Assembly (NCBI GenBank): GCA_030295235.1
Contig: AP026126.1
Span: 1,550,001-1,614,000 of the forward strand
Direction: 5' to 3'
Length of the DNA: 64,000 bases
DNA from: Fistulifera solaris
Lineage: Eukaryota > Bacillariophyta > Bacillariophyceae > Naviculales > Stauroneidaceae
Positions within the stretch are counted from its first letter, which is position 1. Each line of letters opens with the position of its first letter. Of this stretch, positions 16,524 to 63,100 are shown piece by piece. The notes under the pieces were generated by a model. It ran no database searches. It was not told the DNA's origin and was given only the letters and a program-made list of their open reading frames with translations. The translations under genes and the position numbers were made by a program.

Positions 16524-17143
16524 ATGCGTGCACCAATGAAAACGTTTCTTGTTTGGAGCCCACTGCTCCTGTGCTTTGTTTTGAAGGCGCAAGCCTTTCA
16601 ACATTGTGGTTTCGTTCAAACTTTGAGAACTTTTTCGACGGCCCGGCCCGTGTCATTCACGGTTTCGGATCTTGAATTGGATGACTACCGTGATTATGAA
16701 ACAGTAAAAAGCCATCTGGTCCATTCGAAACATGCAGAACAAATTGCTGGGGTGTACAGAATTCTGAGCAAGACGCAATATGTAAACTTTTGACGTCGGT
16801 GGGAACGAACAAAATCGTTGTACTGAAAATATTCGCTCCTTGGTGCCGCGCTTGCAAGGCTCTGGCGCCCAAGTTCTCGCAAATAACCCAAGATGAGAAA
16901 TACAACAACAACTTGCCCATTGTTTGGGCCGAATTGAGTGTACAGTACAACAAAGAACTTGTCGTCGATGAACTCGCGGTAGACGCCCTTCCTACGGTAC
17001 AATTTTATGTGGATGGAAGACTCGAAGATAGCTTTGCGTGTGGGCCGACCAAGCGTGTGTTACTCAAGCGCAGACTCGCCCAGATGATCAATGCCAACGT
17101 CGACGCGCAAACACGACAACTTAAACTACGCTCCTCAGCCTAG
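16524..17143 (+). CDS. Plastid-type thioredoxin-like protein
   Basis: About 206 residues. The N-terminus MRAPMKTFLVWSPLLLCFVL ends in KAQA|FQ, an AxA|F site like the diatom ASAFAP plastid-import motif, so it is probably a bipartite plastid precursor. The mature part is a thioredoxin fold: KIVVLKIFAPW, active site WCRAC (both Cys present; Arg-Ala between them is non-standard), cis-Pro in DALPTVQFYVDGR, and a basic C-terminus. The frame breaks at a G4 run (16749-16752). Five G would align VQNSEQDAICKLLTSVG with the matching LQNKEQHAELMKSVG of the next gene. It is a tandem paralogue of the fused gene starting at 17982 and lacks the extra domains. Confidence 0.8.
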
Positions 17144-17981: not shown

Positions 17982-19960
17982 ATGCGTCTCGCTTGCTATT
18001 ATTCACTTTTGCTAGCAAGTACTTCCGTATGGTCTTTTTCGGTCACACGAAGTCCTGTATTCTCTGCTATCGCACCTCATCGCCCGCATTCTTTAACCTC
18101 GTCGTCCCTACATCCGTATACGTCATTGGCTGTCTCGACGTCGTCGCATCCGAGTTCGACGTTCGCTCCGGAACTGGGCAGTGACGGTCTGTTTCATTTA
18201 CAAAACAAAGAGCAGCATGCGGAGCTCATGAAATCAGTCGGACAGGACAAGATTGTCGTACTGAAAGTCTACGCTCCCTGGTGCCGAGCTTGTAAGGCTC
18301 TCGAAGCAAAATTTTTACAAGTTCGACACGACCCGAAATATAGTAACCTTCCAATTGTCTGGGCGGATTTAACAATTCAACACAACAAGGAATTTATCAA
18401 GCAGTTGGGTGTGCTGGCGTTACCTACGGTTCAGTTTTATGTACAGGGTCGTCTGATTGATACATTCGCTTGCGGTCCATCGAAAGTGCCGATATTGAAA
18501 CGTAAACTTGCTTCGACAGTCAATAAGCACGTCGATCCAGCTACGATGCAGTTGAAACCTTTAGATATGAGTGCAATAGAGCTATCATATCAAGAGGGCA
18601 GCTATGAGGGAGTTGATATGGACTCGGAGCAAGCAGACGACGTAACAGTGACGACTCCGGCAGCAACCAGTCCCAAGGCTTTGTTGAAATCACCCTACCG
18701 ACCTGCACCCGCGGCTTTTGCAAAAGTCGATCTCGATGCTGAACTATCAGCTGAAGATCGCAAACACATGGAATCAATCCCATACTTTTCGGAACTTTCT
18801 CTGGCAGATCGTGACGAGGTTGCGGAAAAAGCAACCCTGGTCACTTTTGCACCAGGCAGTATCATTCTCCGAGAAGGAACACCTGGCAATTCCTTCTATA
18901 TGCTCAGCTCAGGATCCGTGGAAATTTGTCAAGCTGCGACGTATTTATCTGATCCGCTCGTTTCACCACCTCCTTCCTATCTAGGAACGGTCATTAACGT
19001 TCTAGAAAATCCAGGAGACTACTTTGGCGAACGAGCCTTGCTAACTGGTGAGCCACGCGCTGCAAGTATTCGAGCAAGCGACCAAGAGACAAAAGTGTGG
19101 GTATGGGACAAAAGGATTTTCCAGCTAGTTCGGTTTTATCAGGACGAACAAAGTTCGCCTCAGCGCGCAACGTTTCAGTGGACGACAAGTACGGTCTCAG
19201 TGTCGTTTCGTTGCAATCCGATACCGCCGATTGGCAACAGCGTACTGTCAACGTTGCCAATCAGGTACGTGGAAGCACAAACTCGCCCTACATTATTCGC
19301 GGAGTAGATACAGATGATGATGTAGAATACGATGAAGAGGTGCTGACAAGCTCATCGAATGAATTTGCGGTGAAAAGAAGCGACGAAGTCATTTTGTCAC
19401 TGTTGTCGAAGTTCAAGATGGTGCGCTCGATACGCAATTGTTTGAACTATTTAGTTAAAACACGGGCGACCTGGGGTGATTCAGGGAATCGCATACGGCG
19501 CTCTTTGTTAGTGTCGCGACTGACGCCTGCACAGCGGGCCGAATTCGCGGAGGCTTTTGAATTTTCGGATGCCAACGGCGACGGGCAGATTGAACTGCAG
19601 GAATTGAAGCGAATTGTTTACAGCATGAACAGTGGAGAAGAGGGAGAAAACGAAGCATTGGACCAGGAATTGCAAGTCGCAATTGAAAGAAACAGCGCAG
19701 GACCGGCCGTGTTAGATTATACCGATTTTATGGGCATCATGGCAGAATCTGAATTTTACTTCCTTTTCAACGACATTTTTGCTTCGCTCGATACGAACAA
19801 TTCTGGTTATGTGAAAGCGATGGACCTCGATCGAGTACTATCTGGAGTCCGCGATCTGATCAGTGATGACCGAAACAGTATCATTGACGTGGAAGATCAA
19901 GACATGCTGATCGACTACGAGCAATTTACACGCATGTTACTAGGTACAAGTCTGCAATGA
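17982..19960 (+). CDS. Thioredoxin / cyclic-nucleotide-binding / EF-hand fusion
   Basis: About 659 residues in three modules. (1) An N-terminal hydrophobic leader (MRLACYYSLLLASTSVWSFS) and Ser/His-rich region, probably organelle targeting, then a thioredoxin fold with APWCRACKAL and cis-Pro LALPTVQFYVQGR. (2) At about 270-390, a cNMP-binding beta-roll: ILREGTPGNSFYMLSSGSVEI, then the phosphate-binding cassette PGDYFGERALLTGEPRAASI with its Glu and Arg. (3) EF-hands: a canonical loop DANGDGQIELQE, and a second, DTNNSGYVKAMD. The frame changes between the cNMP module and the EF region near 19130, inside the domain, and no plausible separate start exists for the second part. One fused protein is therefore the simplest reading. 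It would couple Ca2+ and cyclic-nucleotide sensing to disulfide chemistry; that role is inferred. Confidence 0.72.
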
Positions 19961-20405
19961 GGTACATGACGTATCGTGTTGAAGAACTACCACATCTTTG
20001 GCAATGAGGCACATGTCACATTTTCCCACTTAACAACGACGCACGCCGCTTGCAAACATTAATCAATACAAAGCGCTCTTTCATATCATCGAACGTCTTT
20101 GAATCTAGATAATTGGAACCATCAATGAGACCCGTAGGCCTCGGACTCGAAGGGAGTTAAGAAATACCGGTAGACGTAAATCCTTGGAACTGGGATGAAA
20201 TATTGAAACTTGGAACCCTTTCTCAGTACCGGAACGACGTGATGTCCTTTATTCATTCGTGTGCTTCGATGACGTATAGTCCAGTACTGTTTGCCCCCAG
20301 TGAAAAAGGACGCGAAATGAAGAAACAAACGTTTGCCTCGTTTTTGGGTTGCAACTTTTATTACAGTATTATTTATTTATTTGTCATTGATTACTTGTGA
20401 AACCG
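19961..20405. other. Intergenic, no gene seen
   Basis: About 445 bp between the fusion gene and the DUF3119 gene. Contains AT-rich stretches near 20340-20395 just before the next start. No RNA or protein gene recognised. Confidence 0.45.
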
Positions 20406-21155
20406 ATGAGCATCATGAAAGCATCATCTACAATTATTTGTCTCTACTTTCTAGTGGCACCTACTTCGTGGGCTTGGGTGAATCATCCCAAAACAGGCAG
20501 TCAAGTACCTGTAGTTCGATCGTCGTTCAACACGAAATCTTCCCCCACGCGCTTGAATGGATTCTTGGAAGACATTTTCAGCAAGGCGCAATCTTTCGGA
20601 AAGAAAAACGTCGTGGAAGCTATTGAACCTCCCCAATACGACCCTGTTACGATTGAACCTGACTTTCGTGTCGCGGCTTTGTTCTTAGGGTCTGGCATCC
20701 TCTTGGACACCATCCCTTACATTCAGTTGACGCTCGGCCCTCTTGTCACGCTTTTGGGACTCCTCTTTCTGGTGCAAACATTTCGCATTCGTTTTGTTCT
20801 TAATGAAGACAATGCTTTGGAACTACTAACCGTGAATCCCTTTACCGGCGAGACGAAGGATTCGGGAGAGAACGTCGTGGTGGGCGGAGCCAATGTTTGG
20901 GCGACTTCGTCAATTGTGAACTACGACTTCTTTCCTCCTATCGACAGTTCCCCAGTTGGACCTATTCTGGTGTATTTTAAGGAGACGCAAACACCTTCCG
21001 AAACTTGGAATCAAGGTCCTGGTGCCAAAGCCAATGATCCGGAGAAAATTGCGGCTGGCGAAGCTGTAGCTGGACAAGTGCATTTCTTCCCGGCCGTTTG
21101 CAAGTCAGAGCAGCTGCGGGACGAGTTTGTGAAGCGACAGGTTGCTAAGCTTTAG
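20406..21155 (+). CDS. DUF3119 family protein, plastid precursor
   Basis: 249 residues from ATG 20406; an in-frame GTG lies 9 bases earlier. The N-terminus (MSIMKASSTIICLYFLVAPT) ends in SWAWV, a signal peptide plus aromatic residue as in plastid precursors. The core has two adjacent hydrophobic helices (LFLGSGILLDTIPYIQLTL, LVTLLGLLFLVQTF), then a soluble part with VNYDFFPP, PILVYFKE and VHFFPAVCKSEQLRDEF. This order matches DUF3119, conserved in cyanobacteria and plastids; its function is not established. Frame intact. Confidence 0.75.
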   Translation: MSIMKASSTIICLYFLVAPTSWAWVNHPKTGSQVPVVRSSFNTKSSPTRLNGFLEDIFSKAQSFGKKNVVEAIEPPQYDPVTIEPDFRVAALFLGSGILLDTIPYIQLTLGPLVTLLGLLFLVQTFRIRFVLNEDNALELLTVNPFTGETKDSGENVVVGGANVWATSSIVNYDFFPPIDSSPVGPILVYFKETQTPSETWNQGPGAKANDPEKIAAGEAVAGQVHFFPAVCKSEQLRDEFVKRQVAKL

Positions 21156-27007: not shown

Positions 27008-27581
27008 CTTGAATGACAGCGTTTCTTCGTGTCTACAGGTCCTACTGATTGTGATGCATTGATTAAGTCGATGAGTACTCCGTTATTTACAATGAAGATT
27101 AGCTTGCATAATGAATTTGAGAAAAAAATGCAACGAGAAGTAATACTCCACTCATGATTCAAGACTGACAGCCAGTCTTGCCAAAGCTATTGTTAATAGC
27201 AAAGTCAACGATCTTGGTAATCTTCGGCGCTGTTCATCGAGCAATACATTGCATGGCTAGCTAAAATAGATTTTAGCAGCAACTACGACATCTATTTGCG
27301 AGAATGGTTGATGATAGCCTGTGCAATAAACGCAGAACAGTTAGTGTATATTTTTTCTGACGACTCGTGACTGCAATGCAGTCGTGGTAATTTTGAGAAG
27401 TACGTAGTACTCCGTAGTAATTTGAAGGCAGCTGCATTCAAAGTTCCCTCCAATTGTTCGGGAGTTTCTTATTTTGTCGTTTAAAAGATTGCATTTGTCA
27501 TCATTACTACGTATTAACAATTATCCTCCATTTCTTCGCATTATAATCATTGATTATTGTCACAATATCGCAATCGGCTTC
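27008..27581. other. Divergent intergenic region with palindrome
   Basis: About 570 bp between the HAD-like gene and the urea transporter. Contains the near-palindrome GACTGCAATGCAGTC (27369-27383), related to one at about 43949-43963, and AGTACTCCGTAGTAAT just after it. No gene seen. Confidence 0.45.
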
Positions 27582-49332: not shown

Positions 49333-52099
49333 ATGCTCCGAAGGAGCGGAGAAACGGACCGAAAGGCAACACTATTCACTCCGGGAAGTCAGCGTAAGAG
49401 CCGATTGCGACGGAAAGCAAACGATGAAGAGATTGGACTGGTCACAACACCGTCGGACGTCGTAGAAAAGACGCCGTCCGCATCCGTCTCGCGACCCAAG
49501 AAAGTAGTCCGTCGGAAGACTAGTAATCCCACTAGGTCGAATGAGAGTATCTTGTCCATGACTTTCGCGATATTGACTCTGGTTTGTTGCTTTGCTTCAA
49601 TTATGACGGTCATGCTCTTTCTGTTAATGCACATCGAGACTCCAGATCTGCAAATGAAGGACTTATTGTATCAAGGCGAACACAGTCTTAAAGGAGTATT
49701 ACAGCGCAAAGAAAAGCAGTTAGTGGATGCCACCCAAAGCTTACTGGGTCATTCGCCGGGACTGCAGCGTGATATTCATTCAGGCCATGCCGTGCAAACC
49801 ATTCGGAAGGATGAGTCAAATGTTATTGATATGCGCGAATTGAATTATCAATTGCCATTTTCGAATGAGGATGGCGGTGTTTGGAAACAAGGTTGGGATG
49901 TTCAACCTGTTCTAGTTGATGCGGAGCACCCTTTGACGGTCTACGTCATTCCTCATAGCCATTGCGATCCGGGTTGGCTGAAAACATTTGATCAGTATTT
50001 TCAATCGCAAACCAAAAGCATCATTACCACTGTAGTGGATGCACTTGCCAAAGATAAGCGAAGAAAATTCATCTGGGCTGAAATATCATATTTTGCCTGG
50101 TGGTGGGAGGAACAAAATGAAAGTACACGACAACTGGTCAAACGGTTATTGAACGAAGGGCAACTGGAGTTTGTGACGGGCGGTTGGGTACAGCCAGACG
50201 AAGCCAATTCGGAATTGTATGCTATGGAAATACAGTTGCAGGAAGGACATACGTGGATTCGAGAGAACATAGGCGAGGAAGCTATCCCGAAATACGCATG
50301 GTCGATCGATCCCTTTGGTTATTCATCGTCGGCCGCTTGGCTCTGGCAAAAATACGGCTTTCGCGCCATGCTGATCCAGCGAGTGCATTATGCTATTAAA
50401 AAAGAGCTGGCTCGAAAGAAGCACCTTGAATTTTACTGGAGGCAAACGTGGGACGAGCATGGTGAGCACGATATTTTTACTCACGTCATGCCATTCTTCA
50501 GTTATGATATTCCGCATACTTGTGGACCCGACCCGTCTGTGTGCTGTCAATTTGACTTTAAGAGGGGGGAGAGGGCAATGTCCTTGGCGTAAGGATCCCA
50601 TTAGAGTGACGACTGAAAATGTTGCAGAGCGAGCTATGCTCCTTTGGGATCAATACAAGAAAAAAGCGGCTCTTTACCGCTCGAACACGGTGCTCGTACC
50701 TCTTGGTGACGACTTTCGTTATCAAACAGCCAAAGAAGCGGAAAGCCAATACGAAAATTACCAAATAATCTTCGACTATCTTAACAAGAATGTTCCCGGG
50801 GCCCACGTTCAGTTCGGAACTCTTTCTGACTACTTCAAAGACGTCATGGGTACTTTCGACACACCGTTGCTCAAGGGCTCATTTTTTACCTATGCTGATG
50901 TGAATGAAGATTACTGGTCTGGCTATTTCACTAGTCGTGCGTTTGATAAGGCACTCGATCGACAATTGGAGAGAGTGTTGTACGCTGCTGAAAGTATGGG
51001 AGGTTCATCGCATGAGTTACGTGGTCCTCGTCGTGAGCTGGCTTTGTTTCAGCACCATGACGGTGTAACAGGAACGGCGAAGACTAAGGTCGTGGAAGAC
51101 TATGCTCGAAGAATGTTTGGTGCCATCAATGAGACGCATGAGTGGATGTTAGCTTTCATCAAGAAATCTCAGACCACGTCGGTGAGCCGCTTTGGTGAGA
51201 CTTTGAAACCTTGCATATCTGCAAGTGAAGCACGCGATTTAAGCATAAATCATTGTTCCGGAGAAGTGCTCTTATACAATCCATTGGAATCTCCGCAGCG
51301 ATGTGCAGACACAACGATAGCAGGACGGTCATTTGCTTTAGGGTTCATACCTTGCGAAATTCCAGGAAATGTTGCTGGATCAAATACCGTCATTGAATTT
51401 GATCCCAAGACAGGGCTAATGACTGCTCCGTTTAAAGAACAATGGATGCTATGGAAAGTTAAAAGTGGAGGGGCGTATCTTTTCGTTCCAGGTACCCAAA
51501 TCCCTTACGATATGAAGAACATTACTGTCGAGAAAGAGGGCTTCGTAATCAATACAGAGAAGTGGAAACGATTCATAGTAGAAAAGGAAGTTCCCTCTGA
51601 ATATGGGACAAATGCCATCGTTATTGACTTCGTCTACGAAGTTAGCGTCGATATTGACAACGAAGAGTGGTTTGTTCGTTTTGGCGCCGATATTCAGAAC
51701 AATGGCTACTTTCACACGGATTTGAACGGCTTCAATTTTGATACACATCGTTTCAGATCTGACATGCCCATTCAAAGTCAAGTATTCCCAATGCCGACGT
51801 TAGCAAGCATCGACGACGACAACATGCGGCTAACAATCATATCGACGCACGCGCAGGGTACGGCATCTCTGGAAGATGGAACGATTGATGTATGGTTGGA
51901 CCGAAGACTACGACAAGACGATAACCGTGGGTTGGGGCAAGGCGTGCAAGATAACCGACTAACTCGGACGCGTTTTCGTGTCATTCTTGAATCAGGTGGC
52001 CATGACCACGCTGCCGAGTTTGACGTGAGCCCACTCGTCCGACGAATGTGGGATGAACTTCAGCATCCTCTTGAAATGTTTGGCCAAGTAACTTCGTAA
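49333..52099 (+). CDS. MAN2A: Golgi alpha-mannosidase II (GH38)
   Basis: About 921 residues; a type II membrane protein. A basic cytosolic tail (about 70 residues) and one membrane helix (about 75-100, TFAILTLVCCFASIMTVMLF) precede the catalytic region. GH38 motifs: VIPHSHCDPGWLKTFD (zinc ligands), WAEISYFAWWW, WSIDPFGYSSS (nucleophile Asp region), QFDFKRGRGQ...PWRKDP region and LFQHHDGVTGTAKTKVVEDY. It trims two mannoses from GlcNAcMan5GlcNAc2 in complex N-glycan maturation. The frame breaks at a G6 run (50564-50569); five would read FKRGRGQCPWRKDP. The C-terminus is shorter than in animal enzymes (about 1,140 residues), ending soon after DVSPLVRRMWDELQHPLEMF. Confidence 0.92.
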
Positions 52100-60104: not shown

Positions 60105-63100
60105 ATGACTGACTCGCAATCTACCAATTCAGCATCGAACAATCTAATCAACGACGATGTGATTCTTCGACAGCTACTCAAGGAACTTCCCGGAGTAAAA
60201 ACACAATTCCAGTTCAAAGGATGGCAAAAGTCATTCTTGGATCGTTATCATTATCTTTTGAGCGAAGAGGGCGTCGCCAAGGCCAGCGAAACGTACGATG
60301 AATTCCAAAAACTGGTGTTGAAGCTCATGAAGCAGATTCTGGCCTTGAAAGAATACTACGACAAGGGCGAGGTAAAACCAGAGCGAACTTCGGTGAAAGC
60401 ACTCTCTTGTATACAAGAATTGTCGAAGCAGATCATCGCAGTTACGGATGAACAAGTAAAGATGGTCCCTGGGACCGGTCAAAGAGAAAAAAGAAGCCGG
60501 ATATACAAAGTTCATGATGGGTGCTGTTCTGGTGAAAGACAACTTCAAGCAACACGGTCGTCTAGTCATGTGCGCCGAGTCGCTGGCTCGTTTCCACAAG
60601 AAAATGTCCGAATGTATCAACGACCGATTTGTGTTGGAGACAATGGAGAATTTTGGTTGGAAGCTCCAGCTTTTCTGTGATATCATGTCGGATTTAGGTC
60701 TTTACCAAGCCATGACAAAGAGTCAAGAGTTGGTTCCAGTGCCCGAGCCGCTCATTGTGATTGCTACGGAGCAAGTTTCAAACAAAGAAGAGAACCCTTT
60801 TCCAGTCAATGTATCTGAAACGGCAATTGTCATATCACCGGCCGTTGTTGAAAAGAAGCAGAGTCGTCGAGTCTGACACTGGGGGATGTCGCTGTGGAAG
60901 CGCCAATTGAAGATGAAGGACTAGATGAACATCATGCTACTAGCACATCGACTGTTAATGACATGGATGAAGAGGCACTTCGTCCCAAAATAATGCCAGG
61001 GAAACTTTCGAGTCCAATCAAATGTGAAAAGGTCGTAGCTTCAAAGACCAAGCCGGGGAGGTTGGTGATTCACGAATATCAGCCAGCACCGAGACCTGGG
61101 CTCATCGACTCACCCCGGAGAAGATTAAGAAAGTTACAGCGCTTCTATCCGAATAAACAAACAGGCAGACGCTCGGCTCCTCGAAAGCCTATCAAAATGG
61201 ATATGAGCTCCGACGATGAGTCGGAATACAGTCAATCGTCCTCCAGCGAAACAGTTAAGACTGTTCATTCCGAAGACGCAGATTACATTATGGGGATAAG
61301 CCAAGTTGACAAAACACCTACAGAAATAGAGAAATCTCCTTCGCATTCGAGAAAAGAAACGAGCGGAATGGACCTGGAAAAGTATCTCCCGAAGTCGAAA
61401 CGGCGCAGCCCAAATAATATAGTTCGCGATAAATGTGCGACGAATGCGCTAGGCGCTGATTTTGAAGACATCTCTGAGTACAGTCAATCGTCCTCCAGTG
61501 AAACAGTCATGACAGTTCAGACGGATGATGCAAATCACATTTTTGGCGACAATCGGTCCCAAAAAATATCGCCCAAGATAGAGGGCAAACTAAAAGGTGC
61601 TACCTCTTTGAGCCAAACAAATGAGATGGGATCAACTACCTCTCTGTCAGATTATCTTTCGCCATCCTCGGAATCAAAACGACAACCAAGAAATAGGCAA
61701 GCACCAGCACCTGCCTTAAGCTCCGAACATGCACGCGTAACTAATGAAGGGCCGCCTAATTCACCTAATGAAGAGATGGCGCGAAATGGAGTTGGACCAT
61801 CAAAAGCGAAGCATTTGATGCCAGGGCCCCCAGTCAAATCCAGCCAGGAATATTTCAGATAGAATGAACCAGACTTCAGAGAAACCGAAAGAGAGGGAAA
61901 TAGCATTGATCAAGGACGAACCGCAAAACCAGGGCAGAAATCCGTCAAGCAAATCGCAGCTGCTCGGGAGTGGAGACAGTACGCCAATTCTCGGCAAAGG
62001 AGATGAAAGCATAACTAGGAATAATGGGGGAAGGAACGCTGTGAAACATGAGCCATCTCCCTTTCCAGAAGATCTAGAGTCGGAAAAGCACGATGACAAC
62101 AAACACGTCCATGGACAGGGGAAATCAAAAACAGTTCCACAACGTAAACAAAAGTCAGACCCGCAGAGTCCCGCATTTGCTTCTAGTCCACGTAACGTTA
62201 CTACACCAAAAATGGAGAGTAAGAAGGATGTTCGAGACGGAGACACCGCTGAGAACCGGCCGGAAAGTTCTGGAACAGGCAAAACCAAGAAGCGCAACGA
62301 CCAACGTGAAACAGACTTACAGAACAGTGACACGAGCAAGAAATCTGACATAAAAACCGAGCGCTCTCCATCGCAGCCCCCTAGAAAGGTAAAGGAAAAG
62401 CCGGATATTGCTGACGATTCGCAGCCGTTGACCCAGAAGCCCAAAGCAACGGCGAAAATCCCCCCGCCGTCACCGCGATCCACAAAAACGACAATAAAGA
62501 AACTGCAGCCAAAAGTACTGACCTTGGTCAAATGAAGCAGAAACATGGGGGCGACAGCGAAAGGAAAAACTTAGAGACGATTATAGTTGTCGCTGCCGAA
62601 GAGTCTTATCCGTCATCCCCTGAGAGAAAGCAACTGGCAGCCCAGGTTCTGCAACATGTCCTTTCCTGTCTTACAGCTCGGGAATTCGTTCTAGGAGACG
62701 AAGTTTATAAGCACAACGTCCATGTTGTCAAAACACGAGAAGATTTCGGCAACGCCGATGCTTCAGGTGAAGGAACTTTACTGAGAAGAAATGTTTTGTT
62801 AGATACTGTGATGGCCGCCGCTGACTGCTACGTAGTGATTTCACCTGATCACAATTACTCTATCCCACTGATGAGACAATTCGATAAACAGGCCTATATT
62901 GCAAAGTGCGCTGGAATCGTGAATTATTCCTCCAATCCATGGTGCGAAATGCGCGGTGCCGTCGCCATCTCAATGATGTGCCACGAACTGGGTTGCCTTC
63001 CTGTATCTTCATTCTGTTGTATTCCTGAAGCCAGTGAGCTTGCTGGAAGAGGAAGAATAGAAAAAGACAATGATTTCGCTCCACAGCTACCACAAATGCT

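What the first reader, a model, noticed from the sequence alone, without database searches (positions are those of the whole stretch)
17982..19960. Fusion of thioredoxin, cyclic-nucleotide-binding and EF-hand modules next to a stand-alone thioredoxin paralogue
One coding region carries a WCRAC thioredoxin fold, a cNMP-binding cassette with PGDYFGERALLTGEPRAAS, and at least two EF-hand loops. Such a protein could transmit Ca2+ and cyclic-nucleotide signals to disulfide targets, perhaps in the plastid. I do not know this combination as a described protein. The neighbour at 16524 has only the thioredoxin, suggesting duplication followed by domain gain.
Basis: partly seen in the sequence, partly recalled or inferred. 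Interest (0 to 1): 0.75.

Follow-up and report, generated by a model that had tools for sequence, protein, structure and literature searches.

The report
Plastid thioredoxin fused to signal sensors
A diatom gene appears to encode one protein that joins a disulfide-exchanging enzyme to a cyclic-nucleotide sensor and a calcium sensor, probably in the chloroplast, so two cell signals might directly steer chloroplast redox control.

Summary
Window 17982-19960 encodes a thioredoxin domain, a cyclic-nucleotide-binding domain (CNBD) and a calmodulin-like EF-hand module with two canonical loops.

The homoeologous copy on contig C5 decides most of it. Before the swap 19 of 19 changed codons are silent in frame 1 only; after it 12 of 12 are silent in frame 2 only. 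There is no gap between the copies at the swap, and CNBD and EF parts hardly change. Selection thus sees one protein of about 659 residues in both subgenomes. The swap is probably an assembly error shared by both copies; an unrelated GH38 gene in the window has a similar shared break. Recoding or a tiny intron is not excluded.

The leader resembles a diatom plastid presequence. Best mechanism: a calredoxin-like plastid thioredoxin gated by Ca2+ and also by a cyclic nucleotide. Location, ligands and gating are inferred. The neighbour at 16524 is a tandem Trx paralogue; the direction of change could not be tested. My literature searches showed no paper on the triple combination.

The parts
17982..18035 (+). 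Start of the fusion protein: signal-peptide-like first 18 residues, followed by Phe (SVWS|FS)
   Evidence: Hydrophobic stretch LACYYSLLLAS, no acidic residue in the first 60; plastid-import rule recalled; no predictor run
18036..18160 (+). Presumed transit peptide, rich in Ser/Thr
   Evidence: Composition; least conserved part between homoeologues, dN/dS about 0.5 for 17982-18160
18219..18470 (+). Thioredoxin domain; WCRAC at 18279-18293
   Evidence: PF00085 residues 80-163; WCRAC at residue 100; 17 synonymous and 5 nonsynonymous differences over 18189-18560
18840..19124 (+). Cyclic-nucleotide-binding domain (extent from the ORF1 reading); phosphate-binding cassette at 19011-19067
   Evidence: PF00027 residues 287-381; nearest solved relatives include PKG and PKA regulatory domains; 22 synonymous and 0 nonsynonymous differences over 18765-19094
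19095..19114 (+). Place where the selected reading frame changes; shared by both homoeologues
   Evidence: Phase likelihood, 2-unit interval 19095-19114; codon counts on either side
19112..19516 (+). End of the CNBD and linker to the EF module (ORF2 frame)
   Evidence: 21 synonymous and 5 nonsynonymous differences; no family match found apart from the EF-hands
19517..19957 (+). Calmodulin-like EF-hand module; canonical loops at 19568-19603 and 19790-19825; stop 19958-19960
   Evidence: Pfam EF-hand models, calmodulin alignment, loops, 26 synonymous and 1 nonsynonymous differences
16524..17143 (+). Tandem paralogue: leader plus thioredoxin only; frame broken at a T run in this copy, open on C5
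   Evidence: PF00085, alignment with C5, 64% identity of the Trx domains

Best explanation
One nuclear gene of a diatom-like genome with paired subgenomes makes a protein of about 659 residues: plastid presequence, thioredoxin (WCRAC), cyclic-nucleotide-binding domain, linker, calmodulin-like EF-hand module. The frame change at 19095-19114 is most likely an assembly error shared by both homoeologous copies, not a property of the gene. The protein most likely works as a calredoxin-like stromal thioredoxin: Ca2+ on the EF module and cAMP or cGMP on the CNBD change its conformation and so the access of the WCRAC site to plastid disulfide targets, with peroxiredoxin as first candidate. Shown here: the domains, their signature residues, and continuous coding under purifying selection in both subgenomes. 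Inferred: plastid location, ligand binding, gating, targets.
For: Domains over Pfam cut-offs. Substitutions: 10 of 10 from 18950 to 19096 on third positions of frame 1, 13 of 13 from 19114 to 19306 on third positions of frame 2; changed codons 19 of 19 silent in frame 1 before the junction and 12 of 12 silent in frame 2 after it; likelihood -62.75 with the switch, -84.59 and -89.09 without. Cassette and EF loops intact. In the genome-wide lists (82 Trx and 55 CNBD matches, lower bounds) only this C5/C6 locus pair has both within 5 kb. A shared frame break inside the GH38 domain of an unrelated gene and single-copy 1-nt gaps in coding-like stretches favour an assembly error. Analogy: calredoxin, a Ca2+-dependent EF-hand thioredoxin of the chloroplast (PMC4911631, PMC10602609, passages); stromal Ca2+ signals and EF-hand plastid proteins in diatoms (PMC11663583, passages).
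Against: The window as assembled does not hold one open frame, and the break is in both copies, which a random error would not explain; it has to be systematic. No cDNA, no orthologue from another species. No plastid cyclase found (six loci fetched of 72 cyclase-domain matches; inconclusive). Best PDB relatives of the Trx domain are PDI domains. Structure models gave no inter-domain information.
Confidence: 0.5

Rival explanations
1. Same single protein, but the frame change is real: -1 recoding at translation, or a very short intron (14 or 20 nt with GT...AG ends fit), joins the frames.
For: The break is identical in both homoeologues with no gap. Excision of 14 nt keeps most of the PF00027 score (58.8 bits against 62.1 for the best join).
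Against: The 20-nt excision scores lowest (52.8); introns that short are not known to me in diatoms (recalled); no canonical slippery heptamer is visible, and one of its bases differs between the copies (19114); a shared break also occurs in an unrelated GH38 gene, where special recoding is less expected.
Confidence: 0.1
2. One protein, but not a two-messenger plastid thioredoxin: the leader routes it elsewhere (for instance the secretory system), or one or both sensor domains only hold structure.
For: Best PDB relatives of the Trx domain are PDI domains; a signal-peptide-like start alone would also fit secretion; only two of four EF loops are canonical.
Against: Phe after the presumed cleavage site and a Ser/Thr-rich stretch without acidic residues; 0 and 1 nonsynonymous differences in CNBD and EF parts; cassette Glu and Arg retained; active site WCRAC, not the PDI motif (recalled).
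Confidence: 0.3
3. Two genes: a Trx-CNBD protein ending at 19307, and an EF-hand protein starting at the ATG at 19103 of the other frame.
For: ORF2 has an in-frame ATG at 19103, the next at 19418; ORF1 is open to 19307.
Against: In ORF1's tail (19113-19304) 12 of 12 changed codons are nonsynonymous, so it is not a selected product, while ORF2's frame is silent at 12 of 12. The presumed separate protein would begin with the last residues of the CNBD, and its promoter and leader would lie inside the CNBD.
Confidence: 0.04
4. A decaying gene: real frame breaks in both copies (one in C6, two in C5).
For: Breaks are present in the assembly of both copies.
Against: Parts after the breaks remain under strong purifying selection.
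Confidence: 0.04

Closest known systems
Calredoxin (CRX) of Chlamydomonas reinhardtii (PMC4911631, PMC10602609; abstract starts and passages seen)
   Same: EF-hands joined to a thioredoxin in one protein, chloroplast, proposed decoder of stromal Ca2+ for redox control
   Different: Calredoxin has four functional EF-hands before the Trx (order recalled) and no CNBD; here the Trx is first, a CNBD lies between, and two of four EF loops look degenerate. CRX is described as conserved in green algae.
PKA regulatory subunit and PKG cyclic-nucleotide-binding domains
   Same: CNBD with phosphate-binding cassette; nearest solved relatives include apicomplexan PKG and yeast and mammalian PKA-R
   Different: No kinase and no kinase-inhibitor segment was found by Pfam in ORF1; an insertion of about 20 residues sits in the middle of the domain (profile matched as 2-32 and 43-83)
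Diatom and ochrophyte plastid proteins with added EF-hands: KEA3, DSP1, Tic20-EF (PMC11663583, PMC5462543; passages)
   Same: Known plastid proteins carrying Ca2+-binding EF-hands
   Different: The passages read mention neither thioredoxin nor CNBD in these proteins; in the Tic20 case the EF-hand is N-terminal
Chloroplast thioredoxin-like proteins (TrxL2/ACHT type)
   Same: TrxL2-1 (6lyx, chloroplastic) is among the matches of the Trx domain (E 1.7e-7); a further Cys after the cis-Pro side, FACGP, recalls that group (recalled)
   Different: Ranks below PDI domains and plain thioredoxins; no sensor domains

Membership tests
Thioredoxin family | PF00085 over the curated cut-off | tested here: met
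   45.4 bits, cut-off 23.5
Thioredoxin family | Redox pair WCxxC and Pro before the next strand (ALPT) | tested here: met
   WCRAC at residue 100, ALPT at 146; the classical WCGPC is not present
Thioredoxin family | Disulfide reductase activity | not testable with these tools
   Needs protein
Cyclic-nucleotide-binding domain | PF00027 over cut-off with the Gly-Glu and Arg of the cassette | tested here: met
   55.8 bits; FGE...PRAAS in line with PKG and PKA
Cyclic-nucleotide-binding domain | Binds cAMP or cGMP | not testable with these tools
   Needs protein
EF-hand (calmodulin-like) | EF-hand models over cut-off, canonical loops | tested here: met
   two canonical loops, the other two look degenerate by eye
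Calredoxin | EF-hands and thioredoxin in one polypeptide | tested here: met
   Codon evidence for one protein; no cDNA
Calredoxin | Only EF-hands plus Trx, EF-hands N-terminal (order recalled) | tested here: not met
   Trx is N-terminal, a CNBD is added
Calredoxin | Four functional EF-hands | tested here: inconclusive
   Four-hand alignment to calmodulin, two canonical loops
Calredoxin | Chloroplast location | tested here: inconclusive
   Leader composition only
Calredoxin | Ca2+-dependent activity, target PRX1 | not testable with these tools
   Needs protein

The most novel reading that the evidence does not exclude
A plastid thioredoxin gated by two second messengers, Ca2+ and a cyclic nucleotide, in one polypeptide: cyclic-nucleotide signalling would then act inside a diatom plastid and directly on disulfide targets.
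Probability: 0.35. Interest if true: 0.8.

Novelty: new variant of a known kind. Interest (0 to 1): 0.58.

Why it matters
Direct links from second messengers to plastid disulfide control seem few; the example I found, calredoxin, senses Ca2+ only. Stromal Ca2+ signals in diatoms are now measured (PMC11663583, passages), while what reads them is little known. A thioredoxin carrying both a Ca2+ and a cyclic-nucleotide sensor would be a direct, testable reader of such signals and would raise the question of cyclic nucleotides inside a complex plastid.

Tried and rejected
Separate EF-hand gene: rejected on codon evidence. Stop at 19305-19307 as a refuter: wrong frame there. Relatives outside this genome: viral contigs, 7 stretches matched a pattern, none a relative; genome contigs, 42 stretches, one weak Phycisphaerae match to query residues 31-68. 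I found no diatom relative, and the collections I could use are of viruses and prokaryotes, so the age and spread of the fusion and the direction of the duplication stay open. Plastid cyclase: six loci fetched of 72 matches; the open frames listed showed no clear plastid leader by eye; inconclusive. Structure: Trx-CNBD piece mean pLDDT 43.7, with only its first 136 residues (Trx) above 50; EF half 36.9; no fold search was made with these models. NCBIfam: only matches below its cut-offs. PADLOC, PHROGs and Rfam were not used. Literature: three searches for the combination found 0 papers; a fourth found one on the Toxoplasma conoid, seen in the listing only; searches on Fistulifera thioredoxin, diatom ACHT, diatom EF-hand with thioredoxin, and diatom cAMP showed nothing on this architecture in titles and abstract starts. 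The library lacks most subscription papers. The phase model has parameters set by hand.

Full report
Source. Contig C5 carries a second, collinear copy; the main aligned blocks are 80.8-90.2% identical. Many family matches come in pairs on neighbouring contig numbers. This fits an allodiploid diatom such as Fistulifera solaris, described as 42 homoeologous chromosome pairs with GC near 45% (PMC5935921, passages). The species is my inference.

Observation. ORF1 (17982-19307, 441 aa) holds a thioredoxin and a cyclic-nucleotide-binding domain, ORF2 (19097-19960, 287 aa) an EF-hand module, all over Pfam's cut-offs. By sequence the CNBD resembles PKG and PKA regulatory domains and keeps the cassette FGERALLTGEPRAAS. 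The EF half aligns with calmodulin over all four EF-hands. Two loops are canonical; the other two look degenerate by eye. The Trx site is WCRAC; its best PDB relatives are PDI domains and thioredoxins, with chloroplast TrxL2-1 lower in the list.

One protein or two. The two ORFs overlap in different frames. The alignment with C5 has no gap from 18313 to 19960, so both copies share the change of frame. Of the substitutions from 18950 to 19096, 10 of 10 fall on third positions of frame 1; from 19114 to 19306, 13 of 13 fall on third positions of frame 2. By codons: in 18798-19094, 19 of 19 changed codons are silent in frame 1, whereas in frame 2 (18800-19096) 0 of 17 are silent and 4 codons are stops. 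In 19112-19303, 12 of 12 are silent in frame 2, whereas in frame 1 12 of 12 change the residue. A phase model with hand-set parameters puts the switch at 19097-19112 (2-unit interval 19095-19114), with likelihood -62.75 against -84.59 and -89.09 for one frame throughout. Synonymous/nonsynonymous differences are 7/10 in the leader, 17/5 in Trx, 7/4 in the linker before the CNBD, 22/0 in the CNBD part, 21/5 after it and 26/1 in the EF part. Selection thus sees one continuous coding sequence, and ORF1's tail to 19307 is not a selected product.

Why the frame changes. A mutation older than the split of the subgenomes would have freed the EF half from selection, which is not seen. Two independent mutations at one place are unlikely. 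That leaves a shared assembly error, recoding, or a tiny intron. One search found 7 non-triplet gaps between the copies in coding-like stretches, 5 of them in homopolymer runs. One (18312) breaks the Trx domain of the C5 fusion copy; another 1-nt gap, near 16787, breaks the stand-alone Trx gene of the window. In the phase model three other places have a near-direct switch. Two of them (36446, 60485-60487) come with a 1-nt gap between the copies. The third lies in a GH38 mannosidase gene, somewhere in 50560-50616, a stretch that begins with a run of six G at 50564-50569. It has no gap, so it is shared by both copies. PF01074 is there split into profile positions 1-187 and 185-270 in two frames. 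Shared breaks therefore also hit an unrelated conserved enzyme, which favours the assembly. This control is one gene, and its exact place is not pinned. Four trial joins of the fusion gene scored 62.1, 59.4, 58.8 and 52.8 bits against PF00027, the unjoined frame 60.1. The best join restores a D-K-x-x-F end to the domain, but the margin is small.

Setting. The leader has a short hydrophobic start, Phe after SVWS, and a Ser/Thr-rich stretch without acidic residues in the first 60, as expected for diatom plastid import (rule recalled; the ASAFAP motif is also named in PMC5462543, passages). The Trx-only neighbour and the DUF3119 gene downstream have leaders of similar look, though less free of acidic residues. 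Neighbour and fusion share 59% identity over residues 57-193 and 64% over the Trx domain, so they are tandem duplicates. A search with ORF2 found only itself and C5 (7 candidates scored). Of 82 Trx and 55 CNBD matches, only this locus pair has both within 5 kb; the next nearest pair is 7.5 kb apart on C16 (counts are lower bounds). Cyclase domains are numerous (72 matches), so cyclic nucleotides are probably made in the cell; a plastid source was not found.

Mechanism. Calredoxin shows that an EF-hand module can switch a plastid thioredoxin with Ca2+ and act on PRX1 and NTRC (PMC4911631, PMC10602609; passages). Diatom plastids show stromal Ca2+ signals in high light and oxidative stress, and other diatom plastid proteins carry EF-hands (PMC11663583, passages). 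The protein here has the same two kinds of part in another order, with a CNBD between them. The simplest reading is that both sensors set the availability of the WCRAC site. Ala in PRAAS, where PKG has Thr in PRTAS, hints at cAMP rather than cGMP (rule recalled). Gating, ligands, targets and location are inference.

Novelty. Searches for the triple combination in the held papers found none describing it; eukaryote protein databases could not be searched. I class it as a new variant of a known kind, a Ca2+-regulated plastid thioredoxin with an added CNBD, working like calredoxin but not filed as a member, since domain order and content differ.

Noticed in passing
window 50560-50616: GH38 mannosidase gene whose catalytic-domain profile is split over two frames in both homoeologues without a gap, at or near a run of six G; looks like a shared assembly error.
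   Followed up: partly
window 27186-27388: A stretch of about 200 bases that occurs once here matches several places about 220 bases apart on C5: a tandem array expanded in one homoeologue.
   Followed up: no
window 20397-21155: DUF3119 protein (PF11317) with a plastid-like leader directly downstream.
   Followed up: no
L044 8-808: Open frame made of a repeated unit like IQKFCGGWSRNSGPSVF upstream of a cyclase gene on C5.
   Followed up: no
G000, contigs C3, C4, C25, C26 and others: Many cyclase-domain (PF00211) matches, 72 in the listing, several in local clusters.
   Followed up: partly
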